NCBI GenBank assembly: GCA_020073545.1 | Contig: JAIQEZ010000022.1 | Span: forward strand, 1-48,417 | Reading direction: 5' to 3' | DNA from: Terriglobia bacterium | Lineage (GTDB): Bacteria; Acidobacteriota; Terriglobia; UBA7540 | Length of the DNA stretch: 48,417 nt | Shown: positions 4,254 through 42,626 of the stretch, piece by piece | Layout: every line of letters begins with the position of its first letter | How positions within the stretch are numbered: position 1 is the first letter of the stretch | Notes under the pieces: generated by a model | Seen by the model: only the letters and a program-made list of their open reading frames with translations | Databases searched by the model: none | Told to the model about the DNA's origin: nothing | Position numbers and translations under genes: made by a program

Positions 4254-4320
4254 CGTCCGTCGTCAGTTGTCCGTTGTCAGCATTGAGCTTTCTCGTCGAT
4301 CAAACGCTTGACGACGGACG
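4254..4320. repeat. 12-bp inverted repeat between lptD and hemB
   Basis: CGTCCGTCGTCA (4254-4265) and its exact complement TGACGACGGACG (4309-4320) flank a 43-nt spacer containing further TTGTCCGTTGTC-type near-repeats. The spacing is long for a factor-independent terminator. It may be a dispersed simple-sequence element. Confidence 0.4.
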
Positions 4321-4335
4321 GCGCACAACGGGCAA

Positions 4336-6702
4336 TCAGTACAGTCTTTCCCGCGGCTTCAAGTTACCGAAGGTTCCCACGTTGGCAAGCGAGAGCGCCA
4401 CGCGGTACTGATTCTCACGCCGTAGCGGCCCCAGATCGAACCGCCGGTACTCCATATCGATTGCGAAACACCCAAAATTATAACTGACCTGCCCGACCAC
4501 CTGCTGCGCTATTTTCTGCGCAAAGTTGTAGTCGATGCCGAACGCGCCGCTGAACCCCTTGCGATTCACGTCACCATAAGTCGCCACCGTACGCAGCAAG
4601 TGAAAGGAAGGCAATTGCGAGACGGGAGTGGTCGGCGCAACCGGCGTATTGAACGAGGCCGTGCGGTTGATGAAAAAGTCGGTGAAAGCCAGTCCCAACA
4701 ACCCCCGGCGCACGTGAGAAGTTATGCCGGCGTTCAGTACACCGCCGCTGGGGCTGAGGTCTGTGCGGATTTCCGTATCGTAGCTCGAGAAGGGGGCGAA
4801 TTTGAGCACGGACACGATGGGCGAAAGCCGCTGGCCATGCGCGAAAGCAAATCCCGTGAGTGTGATGGTCGGATCAAGGACATTGTTCTGGCCCTGCACC
4901 AGCGCGCCGCCAAAGGTGGGATCGAAGTAATACTTCTGCGACAAGCGCCAGGAGAAGATGTCCCGCGCCGTGGGACGGTCAGGGGAGCTATCCGGCACAT
5001 CTTTGCGCGCCAAAAGGGTATTGGTCAGTGAGTATTCGACCTCATTGGTTTGGGCGAAGATGTCCATTTGGTCAAAGCGCACGACGTCGAGAACGCGCTC
5101 CGGATCGCGGACGCGCACCAAGTGATATTGAATATCAGGCTCAATCACGTGTTTGAGGCGATGCCCCGCATAAGTTCTGGCCAGCACCTTTTCGAGCGAA
5201 GGCGGCCGCAAGTCGAACCCGAATTCGGCGAGCAGGCGATTGATGGGATCGTGGTGGGGCCCCAGGCTGGCGTCATAATACGTGGCCCGAAATCCGATCG
5301 TGGGAGTGAAGTGAACATGCCAGAATTCCTTCGGACGCAGCAGGATTTGCGGGTGAATGTCCAGGCGCTCGCTCAGCTCCGGAATCACCAGCCCAGGCTC
5401 GGTGCGGCCCACGGCCTCCGCGGAGGTCTGGAGGGAAAAATAGACGGGCCAGGTGCCGATCTGCTTGTCGACGCCCGAAAAGTCAAAACTCGGAGTGCGG
5501 CGAATGATGACGGAATTCCCCGGAACTTGCGCCGACGAGAGGAAGTTCTGGTAACGCTCGGCTGAGATATTGAAGCTGTAAGCATCGAAATTCTTGCTGA
5601 GGAATCCGGACTGCACGGCTTCCGAACTGACGGCTTGCGCGAAGTTTTCCGAGTACGTCAATCGGAACGCCAGCGTGTTGATGTAGTCCACGTTCAGCAC
5701 GCCGCGGAAGCCGTAACCCAGGTCGTCGGCTTTAGCCACGACGCGTACGTTCTCGCCGGGGGCGCGAAGAGCCCGGTCAGGGTTCTTATCGTTCACACCG
5801 AAGTAGTCGACGATGAGGTCGCTGTTCTGACTGGGCCGAACCCGAAATTCCCCTCGTTGCGAAACCCCGCGCTTACTATAGTCCGCAAGGCCCAACATCA
5901 GATCGGCGCTGGGATTGATGGCCCAGAAGAATCCGCCGCCAATAATGTAGCCCTTCTGCGTGGAATTCCCGATATGGGGAAGCAAGAATCCCGTTTGCCG
6001 AGGTTCGCGCGCGATCGAATTCACCAGGAAGGGGGTGTAGAAGAAGGGGATGCCCAGAAGACGGAAGAGCGCCCCGTGCGCGACCACCTTATCGTTGACG
6101 GTGATGCGGGCCTGCCGCACCGAAACCGACCAGCCCTGCTTCTCACACTCGCAAGAGGTCATGCGGCCGTGATGCACAATGTAAGTATCCTCATCCACGC
6201 GATCCACGGTGGCGCCCCAAAAATAAAAGGGGCTCTCCGTCCTCAGCACGCGCGGCCGGGGACGCACCTTGGGATGGACGAAGCCCGTTCCGTTGCTAAA
6301 CCACCCCTGCTTGGTCCGAACGTTGTAGTGAACCTCCTCGGCCGCCAGATGGCTCTGCGGGTCATTGAAAACCACGTGGCCGCGAGCCATCACCTCGCCG
6401 GAAGCCTCATCATAGGAAGCCTCGTCCGCATTCAACTGCATGCCTTCGTAGACAATTTCCACGTGGCCGCGCAGGTGGTAGGTGTTCTTGTCCCTCTCTT
6501 GGGAGTCCGCGCGGATACTGATGACTTTTCCGGAACTCTGAAGTTCCGGCGGAATGAGGGCCTGCTGCGCGCCAGAAGTTGAAACCAGGGCCGAAAGGAG
6601 CGTGCAAGCGGCGGAGAGCCGCAAGCCTACACGTGGGTGAAGAAGGCGAAGAAGGGGAAGATCCATGAGTGCGCGCAGACCGGTCATTTTACTCGAAAGC
6701 AC
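4336..6702 (-). CDS. lptD: LPS-assembly protein LptD (OstA/Imp)
   Basis: The outer-membrane beta-barrel that, with LptE, inserts lipopolysaccharide into the outer leaflet. 788 residues, in the normal family range. A signal peptide ends near SGAQQA. An OstA/LptA-like jelly-roll follows (YHLRGHVEIVYEG, ADEASYDEASGEVMARGHV), then a large barrel domain with FSWRLSQKYYFDP and a C-terminal strand. YNFGCFAIDMEYRR near the end is the conserved penultimate-strand block. The start is uncertain: GTG 6702 and ATG 6687 both lack a clear ribosome site. It implies an asymmetric LPS-bearing outer membrane. It is divergent from the RDD gene. Confidence 0.92.
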   Translation of the reverse strand: MLSSKMTGLRALMDLPLLRLLHPRVGLRLSAACTLLSALVSTSGAQQALIPPELQSSGKVISIRADSQERDKNTYHLRGHVEIVYEGMQLNADEASYDEASGEVMARGHVVFNDPQSHLAAEEVHYNVRTKQGWFSNGTGFVHPKVRPRPRVLRTESPFYFWGATVDRVDEDTYIVHHGRMTSCECEKQGWSVSVRQARITVNDKVVAHGALFRLLGIPFFYTPFLVNSIAREPRQTGFLLPHIGNSTQKGYIIGGGFFWAINPSADLMLGLADYSKRGVSQRGEFRVRPSQNSDLIVDYFGVNDKNPDRALRAPGENVRVVAKADDLGYGFRGVLNVDYINTLAFRLTYSENFAQAVSSEAVQSGFLSKNFDAYSFNISAERYQNFLSSAQVPGNSVIIRRTPSFDFSGVDKQIGTWPVYFSLQTSAEAVGRTEPGLVIPELSERLDIHPQILLRPKEFWHVHFTPTIGFRATYYDASLGPHHDPINRLLAEFGFDLRPPSLEKVLARTYAGHRLKHVIEPDIQYHLVRVRDPERVLDVVRFDQMDIFAQTNEVEYSLTNTLLARKDVPDSSPDRPTARDIFSWRLSQKYYFDPTFGGALVQGQNNVLDPTITLTGFAFAHGQRLSPIVSVLKFAPFSSYDTEIRTDLSPSGGVLNAGITSHVRRGLLGLAFTDFFINRTASFNTPVAPTTPVSQLPSFHLLRTVATYGDVNRKGFSGAFGIDYNFAQKIAQQVVGQVSYNFGCFAIDMEYRRFDLGPLRRENQYRVALSLANVGTFGNLKPRERLY

Positions 6703-36451: not shown

Positions 36452-36778
36452 TCAGAAGCGCCCGCCGCGTCCGTAGCGACCTCGGTCACCTCGGTCGCCA
36501 CCGCCTGGGCCTCTGCCAAACCCCGTCCGCTGGGGCTTCGCCTCATTCACCGTCAACGCACGGCCCTCAAGAGACTGACCATTCAATCCGGCGATTGCCC
36601 GCTGGAGGTCTTCGCCTTCAGCAAGCTCGACAAAGCCGAATCCCCGCGGCGTCCCCGTCATCTTGTCGCGAATCACCACCGCCGACGCCACTTGAAAGCC
36701 GGCTTGAGTGACAAAATCGTTGAGTTGACCGTCGGTCGTGCTATGGGGAATATTACCTACGAAAAGTTTAGTAGCCAT
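36452..36778 (-). CDS. RRM-domain RNA-binding protein
   Basis: 108 residues. One RNA-recognition motif with RNP2 KLFVGNIP and RNP1 RGFGFVEL, then a Gly/Arg-rich tail (GFGRGPGGGDRGDRGRYGRG). Proteins of this kind in bacteria resemble cold-inducible cyanobacterial Rbp proteins. ATG 36778 has GGAGG 6 nt upstream and gives the domain start MATKLFVG. A second RRM gene lies at 40427-40780. Confidence 0.93.
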   Translation of the reverse strand: MATKLFVGNIPHSTTDGQLNDFVTQAGFQVASAVVIRDKMTGTPRGFGFVELAEGEDLQRAIAGLNGQSLEGRALTVNEAKPQRTGFGRGPGGGDRGDRGRYGRGGRF

Positions 36779-36878
36779 CCGATCCTCCAATTGAAAGCGG
36801 CCTTGGGAGGTCCGCCGGGTTACGTTCACTGAAAAACTTGCCTGCGCAGGATGCCGCAGTCAGGGTTGCTTTCTCGTG

Positions 36879-39456: not shown

Positions 39457-39867
39457 ATCATTTCCTGTGAGTACCTTGTCGATGTGGTTCCGGCACGCAG
39501 TCCTCGTCCGGCTGCGCAAAACCCCCATACAACCACTTATCGGGTCAGAACCGGGCAGGTTTTCGACACACGGACGCTCATCCTACGGGGAGACAGATCC
39601 CCATCGCCCCGACGATGATGCAATTAGCACGTTCGCAAATTGTTGCCGTCGGTTCTCCACATCGCTCTCCCAAAGTCGCCCACTCGGAAGTTACTCTCCG
39701 GGCTGCTCCCGACAACTGCCGCCTCCACGGACCCAAGAAATTTGCCACCAAGCTCATGGTCGTTGAACTGACCGACGAAGCCCCTCCGCCAAAACTCCTG
39801 CCAGCCAAGCGCAAGAGAGCCTCTACCCGGCTTTCTCCAGTCACGATATTGGCAAGTGGCAAGTAAG
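39457..39867. other. Region between XRE gene and structured RNA
   Basis: An 83-codon open frame (39615-39866) is present but has no ribosome site and no recognisable motif; I do not call it. If the following RNA is omega-RNA-like, its guide would be encoded at the right edge of this region, just upstream of about 39868. Confidence 0.4.
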
Positions 39868-40110
39868 CGAGAAGGCGGAGTGGCCGACAAGGCTACGAAC
39901 CTTGCGGGGTGAAAGTCCTCGTGCCGTCAATTACCTGTAGTCGGGCGGTTAGCACATCCGGCGCGTATGGAAGCAACGAAGCACGATATGCCCGAACGCA
40001 AGAGCCTCGGCGGCCGCAGGGCGCAGCAGTGGCAGCGACCTGCGAGGCAAGCGAACTCGGAGGCCTGAACATAAGGAAATGTGATCCTGTTTTTGACGCA
40101 ACGTAGAACA
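39868..40110 (+). ncRNA. Large structured RNA candidate, HEARO/omega-RNA-like or group II intron domain I
   Basis: Nested helices are visible: CAAGG-ctacgaa-CCTTG (39888-39904), immediately CGGGG-tgaaagt-CCTCG (39905-39921), long-range TCGGGC (39941-39946) with GCCCGA (39990-39995), CGCAGG (40015-40020) with CCTGCG (40039-40044), and ACAT-aaggaa-ATGT (40069-40082). Unpaired purine-rich linkers include GGAAGCAACGAAGC and GAACGCAAGAG. A stem with a C/T-rich-ACGA-type loop followed at once by GGGTGAAAG recalls IscB-associated omega-RNA (HEARO); GAACGCAAG also occurs in group II intron domain I. No IscB, intron reverse transcriptase or other partner follows, so it is an orphan or relic. Confidence 0.5.
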
Positions 40111-40171
40111 CCGGCGGCCGCGGGTGGAACGATCCCGTGATGAGGAAAGGGGCCGCGTCAGCCCACCGGGA

Positions 40172-40369
40172 TCAATTTTGCGACTCCGACACGGGGGGTA
40201 CGACTACGCTTGCTATCGAGGCTTCATTGCCGGCAGGACTCGTGCTTTCGGCTGGAAGTTCGTTCTGCTTACGGTTGGCGAGTTTTCTCTGTGCGCGGCG
40301 TTCGGCCTTCCCACGCTGCTTTTCCATCCTCTTCATTTCCTTCTGACGCTTCTGGAATGTAGTGGCCAT
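40172..40369 (-). CDS. Small very basic protein, 65 aa
   Basis: ATG 40369 with AAGGAGA 5 nt upstream. N-terminal half MATTFQKRQKEMKRMEKQRG, KAERRAQRKLANRKQN is a charged helix; the C-terminal half is Ser/Pro/Val-rich. To my knowledge the 'TTFQKRQKEMKR' opening occurs in small acidobacterial proteins, function unknown. It lies next to an RRM gene, as does the basic protein at 37764-37955 with the other RRM gene. Confidence 0.65.
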   Translation of the reverse strand: MATTFQKRQKEMKRMEKQRGKAERRAQRKLANRKQNELPAESTSPAGNEASIASVVVPPVSESQN

Positions 40370-40426
40370 CGAGTCTCCTTCGAATCCGAATGCAAGCTGA
40401 CAATACCCCAAACGCTTCGTTTGGGA

Positions 40427-40780
40427 CTACCAGCGAGGTTCACGCGGCTGACGCGGGGCTTCGCGGTAATCTTCGTTAGAGAATCCGCCCGGTCCTCGCC
40501 CTCCACCCTTACTGCTACGCGGTGGGGTCCGCTCCGTCTTGGGACGTGCTTCGTTCACCTTAAGATTGCGGCCACCGAACTCTTTCCCATCAAGGCCAGC
40601 AATCGCCTTGGCCGCTTCTTCATCATTGGGCATTTCCACGAAAGCAAAACCGCGGGCTCGGCCAGTCTCCCGATCCATCGCTACGTGGACCCGTGTAACC
40701 TGCCCGAACCCTTTGAACAGCGCGGTCAAATCGCTTTCCGTCGTTTGGAAGCTCATATTGCCTACAAAGAGGTTTTTCAT
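40427..40780 (-). CDS. RRM-domain RNA-binding protein (second copy)
   Basis: 117 residues. RNP2 NLFVGNMS, RNP1 RGFAFVEM; tail RSSKGGGRGPGGF then Pro/Arg-rich. ATG 40780 has AGGGAG 4 nt upstream. It is a diverged paralogue of the protein at 36452-36778. Expression in cold or stress, as in cyanobacterial Rbp proteins, would be a family-based guess. Confidence 0.93.
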   Translation of the reverse strand: MKNLFVGNMSFQTTESDLTALFKGFGQVTRVHVAMDRETGRARGFAFVEMPNDEEAAKAIAGLDGKEFGGRNLKVNEARPKTERTPPRSSKGGGRGPGGFSNEDYREAPRQPREPRW

Positions 40781-40868
40781 TTTTCTCCCTTGACTACAAT
40801 ACCCCGTCGGAGACGCACAGTTTCGAGCACCGGCGCGGCCGCCCTCCAGGTTTGTCCTACAAAGAGTT

Positions 40869-42626
40869 TTAGACAAAGAGCCGGAAATGGCCCGACCGCG
40901 ACGGATGGCGGAGTTTTCGCAGCACCTTCGCTTCGATCTGGCGGATGCGCTCGCGAGTAACGGCGAAGATCCGGCCGACTTCCTCGAGAGTGCACTCGCT
41001 GTCATCGTCCAGGCCAAACCGCATCCGGATAATTGCTTCCTCGCGAGCCGTGAGCGTTTTCAGCATGGATGCCACTTGTTCCTTCAGGTTGAGGTTGATG
41101 ACTGCGTCCGACGGCGATGCAACAGCCTTATCCTCGATTAAGTCACCCAGGGCCGACTCTCCGTCCTTCCCAATGGGGGTTCCCAAAGACATGGGCTGCT
41201 GCGAAACCTTCTTGGTGCTGCGCACCTTCTCGACAGCTACCTCCAAGCGCTGGGCGATCTCTTCGGAGGTGGGCTCGCGGCCTAGCTCCTGTAGGAGTTG
41301 TCGGCTGGTACGAATCTGCTTAAGGATCGCCCCGAACATGTGTACAGGCACTCGAATCGTGCGCGCCTTATCGGCGATCGCACGCGAGACCGCCTGACGA
41401 ATCCACCATGTGGCATAGGTGGAGAACTTGTACCCTCGGCGCCAGTCGAATTTGTCAGCTCCCCTCATCAGGCCAATATTCCCTTCCTGGATCAAGTCGA
41501 GAAACTCCAGGCCCCGGTTCACGTACTTCTTGGCGATGGACACAACGAGGCGAAGGTTCGCCTCGGTCAGCTCCCTCTTCGCCCGTTCGGCTTCGGCCTC
41601 GCCGCGCAGGATCAGAGCGAGCGAACGTTTCAGGGCGGTGAGCCCGACCTCGCTCGATTTCTCGATCGCCTTTAGCTGCGAGCGGCGCGAACGCAGTTCC
41701 TTGCGTGATGCGGCGACTTTCCCGCGAGCGGCTCCGGTGCGCCGCTCAAGCCGGGCGGACTCGCGCTCCAAGGAATGAATCCGCTCGACCTCGTGCCGTA
41801 ACTTGTCAATCAGGCGCTTCTTTTCGAGCGGGTGTAACCCCATCGAGCGAGCCAGCCGCGACATCTCAACCCGCGTCCGCGACAACTGGCGACGGGCCCG
41901 CAGGTGAGCACGTTGGCTCGATCTCGGAATGTTATTTTGCCGAGCCGCCTGCCTAAGCCCCGCACCGTGGAGCCTCTTAATCTCATCGATAATCCAGAGC
42001 GTGTGGCGGGTCTTCTTCTCGATTTTTTCTGCGGTCAACTCTTCTTCATCGAACTGGACAACTTCTCTAATCGAACGCGTACCGTTGCGCAGCTCCCGGC
42101 CAATTCCGATGAGCTCATTGAGCACCAGCGGAGAACGAGAAATTGTCTTGAGCACCAGCCCGTGGCCGCGCTCCATGCGTTTGGCGATCGCCACCTCGCG
42201 TTCTCGCTTTAACAGCGGTACGCTGCCCATCTCGCGGAGATATAGCCGGACCGGATCGCTGGTTTTGTCCAGAAGGTGTGCGGTCTCGTCGAGTTCGGCC
42301 TCTTCACCGTGGACGGGATCTTCCCGCACCTTGATTTCCACGCGTTCAGGAACCCCGAGCACACCGCGTGCAGCCTTCGCCACAGGAGCGTCTTCGCAGA
42401 TATGGACGTGGTTGCGCTCGAAGGCGGAGAACAGCCTGTCGATCTCCGCCGATGTGTGCGCCTCGCTTGGCAGGATGTCGTTCACTTCGTCATAAAGGAC
42501 ATAACCGCGTTCCTTGCCCAAGTTGATGAGGCTGCTGACCCGGTCATCCTGTTCCTGAAGCACAAGCGACAAAGGTTTCTCCCCTGAACGGACGGCTAAA
42601 ATCAGCATTCCGTTTCTTAAGACCAT
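40869..42626 (-). CDS. RpoD-type primary-like sigma factor
   Basis: 585 residues. Region 1.1-like ([20 protein letters not shown]), region 1.2 ([20 protein letters not shown]), a long basic non-conserved insert, region 2 ([40 protein letters not shown]), region 3 ([16 protein letters not shown] is the 3.2 finger area) and region 4.2 ([20 protein letters not shown]). All sigma70 regions are present, so it should read -35/-10 promoters. Whether it is the housekeeping factor or a paralogue cannot be decided here. The start is uncertain: ATG 42626 or ATG 42608, both with poor ribosome sites. Confidence 0.93.

What the first reader, a model, noticed from the sequence alone, without database searches (positions are those of the whole stretch)
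39868..40110. Orphan large structured RNA (omega-RNA/HEARO-like or group II intron domain I)
About 240 bp of non-coding sequence folds into several nested helices visible by eye: 39888-39904, 39905-39921, 39941-39946 with 39990-39995, 40015-40020 with 40039-40044, and 40069-40082. A stem capped by a CTACGAA loop and directly followed by a GGGTGAAAG element recalls IscB-associated omega-RNAs; GAACGCAAG also occurs in group II intron domain I. Neither an IscB/IsrB gene nor an intron reverse transcriptase is nearby. Downstream lies only a small basic-protein gene on the other strand. If omega-RNA-like, it would be a stand-alone guide RNA whose guide comes from bases just before 39868.
Basis: partly seen in the sequence, partly recalled or inferred. 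Interest (0 to 1): 0.75.

Follow-up and report, generated by a model that had tools for sequence, protein, structure and literature searches.

The report
Broken copy of a mobile intron
The sequence is not a stand-alone guide RNA but the leftover first quarter of a protein-less, group II-type mobile intron; intact copies are scattered through related soil Acidobacteria and carry an altered form of the motif that normally forms the intron's catalytic centre.

Summary
Window 39877-40082 (+) is the 5' end (model positions 1-212 of 906) of an ORF-less group II-type intron whose remaining three quarters are missing from the window. A profile built only from copies in other loci finds it at E=1.8e-50, starting at the intron's first base. 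Intact copies of about 906-916 nt sit at different sites in several acidobacterial genomes; the nearest Rfam match is group-II-D1D4-4 (RF02003), below the curators' threshold. Mobility of the family is well supported: the exon-binding site EBS1 changes in step with the last 8 bases of each copy's 5' flank (0 of 5039 permutations match; a held-out copy shows 9 Watson-Crick pairs). The window copy is a relic: it lacks EBS1 and domains II-VI, so it should neither splice nor move. The interesting part lies outside the window: the family is consistently ORF-less, and its domain V has AAC where AGC is expected in nearly every copy checked; Rfam's domain V model misses it. This is a new variant of a known kind. 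Whether AAC introns splice is untested.

The parts
39877..40082 (+). 5' fragment (positions 1-212 of a 906-position profile, part of domain I) of an ORF-less group II-type intron; everything 3' of it is lost
   Evidence: nhmmer with a profile built without the window, E=1.8e-50; BLAST 74-77% to four long copies and 80% to a contig-end copy; alignment A1
39903..40074 (+). Match to Rfam RF02003 group-II-D1D4-4, below gathering score (25.7 vs 49 bits)
39904..39922 (+). Covarying hairpin with the GGGTGAAAGTCC element
   Evidence: helix 3: 3 of 6 pairs change on both sides, 100% of cells paired; mapped to window
39923..39949 (+). Covarying hairpin of domain I
   Evidence: helix 4: 4 of 6 pairs change on both sides, 100% of cells paired
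39957..39996 (+). Domain I stem
   Evidence: helices 5 and 6, 97-98% of cells paired
40004..40048 (+). Domain I stem enclosing a variable hairpin; the window copy has lost 7 bases of that hairpin compared with most intact copies
   Evidence: helices 8 and 9
39715..39875 (+). 5' flank (former 5' exon side): 3' end of a small gene and its trailer, 86% identical to a paralogue at G000:C146:6771-6931; the homology stops one base before the intron start
40083..40171 (.). Sequence after the truncation point, with no similarity to the rest of the intron; origin not determined
   Evidence: no further match of the full-length profile in the window and no meaningful domain V match

Best explanation
The segment is a dead 5' fragment of a retromobile, ORF-less group II-type intron. 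Inferred course: a full-length copy of about 910 nt, mobilised in trans by a reverse transcriptase from another intron, reverse-spliced into the trailer of a small gene; a deletion or rearrangement then removed everything after base 40082, including EBS1, the catalytic domain V and the branch-point domain VI. What remains should be unable to splice or move and probably has no function. Shown: identity, exact 5' end, truncation, ORF-less intact relatives at different sites, EBS1/IBS1 matching in those relatives, presence of RT genes in nine element-bearing genomes. Inferred: which RT acts in trans, how the truncation arose, that the fragment is inert.
For: Profile without the window matches it at E=1.8e-50 from model position 1. 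RF02003 match in window (25.7 bits, E=0.0013) and homologues (27-47 bits). Full-length copies end sharply at GGAGC...CTCTATCCCAAC with mostly different flanks. EBS1 at element position ~279 pairs with the last 8 bases of the 5' flank: mean score 15.4, 0 of 5039 permutations reach it over the same 650-column scan; held-out copy L130 shows 9 consecutive Watson-Crick pairs. Covariation in the fragment's region. No further intron piece or domain V in the window. RT genes in all nine element-bearing genomes tested. Flank homology to a paralogue stops one base from the intron start.
Against: The RF02003 scores of the family are all below the gathering threshold. The family's domain V is not found by RF00029, its triad is AAC instead of AGC, and the 5' end is GGAGC rather than GUGYG. 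EBS2/IBS2 is only weakly supported. In the degenerate copy L131 EBS1 pairing is poor in the expected register. The window copy's own EBS1 is lost, so its insertion cannot be tested directly.
Confidence: 0.94

Rival explanations
1. Stand-alone omega-RNA/HEARO guide RNA using the bases before 39868 as guide for an IscB-type nuclease acting in trans.
Against: No RF02033 match at E<=10 in the region or in the genome (silent control); no PF14239 found (silent control); the homologues continue for 700 nt into a group II-type intron with EBS1/IBS1 pairing; upstream bases are the tail of a paralogous gene.
Confidence: 0.01
2. Exapted intron fragment: the 5' domain I piece is kept as a functional small RNA or 3'-UTR element of the upstream small gene.
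For: Most pairs of the domain I core are still intact in the window, and the fragment lies just after the stop codon of a small ORF (ending 39866).
Against: Identity to intact copies (75-79%) is at the low end of the range among intact copies (75-97%), so descent from an intact copy without special conservation suffices; no other genome searched shares this truncated form at this site; a variable hairpin has already lost 7 bases.
Confidence: 0.04
3. 5' half of a split (trans-spliced or circularly permuted) group II intron whose other half is elsewhere.
For: A 5' portion is present and the rest is missing; circularly permuted group II introns exist in bacteria (PMC8637638, abstract).
Against: The cut falls inside domain I before EBS1 rather than between domains; no other intron piece in the window.
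Confidence: 0.01

Closest known systems
Rfam RF02003 group-II-D1D4-4 (group II catalytic intron D1-D4)
   Same: Domain I architecture and conserved elements (GGGUGAAAGUCC, GAACGCAAG-like, AGGCCUGAACAUAA); match over the full model
   Different: Scores 25.7-46.9 bits in this family, below the 49-bit gathering score; other RF02003 introns in the same genome score 62.5 and 124.7
ORF-less bacterial group II introns that depend on related introns' proteins in trans (reviewed in PMC4424553)
   Same: No reverse transcriptase inside; RT genes of other introns in the same genomes; signs of mobility
   Different: Here every copy found is ORF-less, across several genera and more distant members of the phylum; domain V is AAC-type and missed by RF00029
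Sister ORF-less introns in the same or related genomes (L030 4326-5058, L115, L117, L118, L126)
   Same: ORF-less stretch, distant similarity over most of the profile, domain V hairpin with similar loop and 2-base bulge
   Different: Keep the AGC triad (AGCCGUAC); several lie next to or inside RT-bearing introns
Rfam RF02033 HEARO / IscB omega-RNA
   Same: Compact multi-helix bacterial RNA of about 200 nt, by eye only
   Different: No covariance-model match, no IscB/IsrB found, no guide-like upstream sequence

Membership tests
Group II intron (the full-length family from which the fragment derives) | Domain I with group II covariance-model match | tested here: met
   RF02003 over model 1-138 in the copies, E down to 6e-8, sub-gathering; window E=0.0013
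Group II intron (the full-length family from which the fragment derives) | EBS1-IBS1 pairing with the 5' exon | tested here: met
   0 of 5039 permutations reach the observed score; held-out L130 has 9 Watson-Crick pairs, degenerate L131 fits poorly
Group II intron (the full-length family from which the fragment derives) | Domain V hairpin with AGC or CGC catalytic triad | tested here: not met
   A domain V hairpin is present just before domain VI and aligns to canonical ones, but the triad reads AAC (once ACC, once GAC); RF00029 does not match at E<=10
Group II intron (the full-length family from which the fragment derives) | 3' end ...AY with branch-point A 7-8 nt from the end | tested here: met
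   Complete 3' ends read CUAUCCCRAC, A at -8; that this A is the branch point is inferred
Group II intron (the full-length family from which the fragment derives) | 5' end GUGYG | tested here: not met
   Copies start GGAGC (GGAAGC/TGAGC variants)
Group II intron (the full-length family from which the fragment derives) | Self-splicing / retrohoming activity | not testable with these tools
   needs in vitro or in vivo assay
Group II intron (the window copy) | Domains II-VI present | tested here: not met
   No further profile or domain V match in the window
HEARO / IscB omega-RNA | Match to RF02033 | tested here: not met
   none at E<=10 for 39600-40400
HEARO / IscB omega-RNA | IscB/IsrB gene adjacent or in genome | tested here: inconclusive
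   PF14239 gave no match in the genome, but the controls were silent too

The most novel reading that the evidence does not exclude
The family behind this fragment is a lineage of obligately ORF-less, trans-mobilised group II introns whose catalytic triad is fixed as AAC rather than AGC/CGC, yet which still reverse-splices into new EBS1-matched sites, so that domain V chemistry works with a different triad or with compensating changes elsewhere.
Probability: 0.35. Interest if true: 0.68.

Novelty: new variant of a known kind. Interest (0 to 1): 0.38.

Why it matters
The window copy itself is a molecular fossil. It led to a multi-species family of protein-less group II-type introns that the standard domain V model misses. 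[quoted passage not shown] this family fits that exception. If AAC introns are active, they offer a natural test of how strictly the AGC triad, shared with spliceosomal U6 (general knowledge), is needed, and they look like natural non-autonomous parasites of RT-bearing introns.

Tried and rejected
HEARO/omega-RNA: covariance model, genome search and IscB domain search all negative (the last two with silent controls). tRNA/tmRNA: none in the window. Other Rfam families at gathering threshold: none in the window. Exact-pattern scan of viral contigs: none. An RT-bearing version of the same family: none found in the class or phylum samples; nhmmer against 37 RT loci gave only distant matches, to ORF-less introns lying beside RT genes in L090 and L030/L017 (Rfam picture). 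EBS2: a suggestive but weak signal at column ~230 (p about 0.01 at neighbouring offsets among many tested), not claimed. Folding energy alone as evidence of structure: not significant.

Full report
What was checked first. Rfam at gathering thresholds finds nothing in the window. With relaxed thresholds on 39600-40400 the only match up to E=10 is RF02003, group-II-D1D4-4, at 39903-40074 (+), 25.7 bits, E=0.0013, covering the whole 138-position model; HEARO (RF02033) does not appear. Folding energy of the single sequence is ordinary (z=+0.43), so the case must rest on homologues.

Homologues. The segment has two further copies in its own genome (C73, and C17 cut at a contig end) and single copies in G006, G071 and G089. 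All alignments begin at window 39877-39879 and, except for the C17 copy, end at 40081-40082. The other copies go on for another 700 bases while the window does not. Named contigs with the same motif are Acidobacteria gp2 MAGs. A class-wide search of 399 genomes found members in 14; an RNA model of the domain V region found 16, sister introns included; a phylum sample adds more distant members at 68-72% identity.

Limits. Full-length copies measure about 906-916 nt (849 nt for one with an internal deletion). They start GGAGCAGYCGACAA and end GAGCUCUAUCCCAAC, and their flanks mostly differ between copies. A profile of eight long copies, built without the window, finds the window at 39877-40082, E=1.8e-50, model positions 1-212, with no other significant match in the 48 kb. 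A domain V model built from the family finds intact copies at 93-100 bits and nothing meaningful in the window. So the window holds the exact 5' end and has lost the rest.

Structure. On nine homologues 97% of cells of the predicted domain I structure pair, 15 of 49 pairs show changes on both sides (0/500 shuffles), and slid controls fall to 37-41% paired.

Mobility of the family. Exon-binding site EBS1 was sought without assuming its place: the last 8 bases before each of seven copies were compared with every usable column of the alignment. One column (286, element position ~279) stands out, mean score 15.4 against 6.6 for the next column. In all 5039 other assignments of flanks to copies, scanned the same way, none reaches it; the maximum is 13.1. 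For one copy (L060) the 5' boundary was moved by one base after the first scan, when its intron start was re-read as GGAAGC; the first scan, without this correction, already exceeded its 60 shuffles. Copy L130, not used to find the site, shows nine consecutive Watson-Crick pairs; degenerate copy L131 fits poorly. Target recognition by EBS1-IBS1 is how group II introns choose sites (PMC4424553), so the family has moved by that mechanism. All nine element-bearing genomes tested contain RVT_1 genes, none inside the copies; help in trans is therefore the likely route, as the same review reports for other ORF-less introns. The partner is not identified.

Unusual domain V. Just upstream of domain VI each copy has a domain V hairpin (for example AACCGGAC-CUGG-GAAA-CCCGG-CC-GUCCGG) that aligns to canonical domain V of RT-bearing introns. 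Where those have AGC, this family has AAC, with one ACC and one GAC; no listed copy keeps the middle G, including members from outside the class. Sister ORF-less introns in the same or related genomes keep AGC. RF00029 finds seven domain Vs elsewhere in the genome but none in an intact copy even at E<=10. The 5' end also departs from GUGYG. Under a strict reading two consensus features of group II introns are not met, so the family is filed as a variant. Whether AAC is catalytically active is not known.

Insertion site. Bases 39715-39875 are 86% identical to C146:6771-6931, the end of an 80-codon gene and its trailer; the similarity ends one base before the intron. In C146 the next bases are TCAGCGTCCAGGACGCC. 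This is consistent with insertion into the trailer of a paralogous gene, although the 3' side of the site cannot be recognised in the window after the truncation.

Verdict. The segment is real, but a relic; omega-RNA is not supported and group II domain I is right. The family is a new variant of a known kind and worth a splicing test.

Noticed in passing
L030 (G000:C41) about 4290-5160: Apparent twintron: an ORF-less group II intron (RF02003, 62.5 bits) seems to sit inside the domain V of an RT-bearing intron (GAGCCGTATG|gtgccag...), whose domain V remainder follows it.
   Followed up: partly
L130 (G157:C192) minus strand, 3000-1410: A member of this family appears inserted in domain VI of a sister ORF-less intron (nested introns).
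   Followed up: partly
[quoted passage not shown]
   Followed up: no
L002 (G000:C73) and L003 (G000:C17): Two copies in the window's genome follow the same transposase-like coding sequence (...YNKRGTAEQWIKEGK), at the same position.
   Followed up: no
window 39615-39866 and L095 1410-1652 (G000:C146): Small basic paralogous proteins sharing HGPKKFATKLMVVE.TDEAPPPK; function unknown; the window copy has a different N-terminal part.
   Followed up: no
window 36452-36829 and 40427-40781 (-): Two RRM-like RNA-binding protein genes (MATKLFVGNIPH..., MKNLFVGNMSF...), judged from sequence only; the second lies beside a primary sigma factor-like gene at 40869-42626.
   Followed up: no
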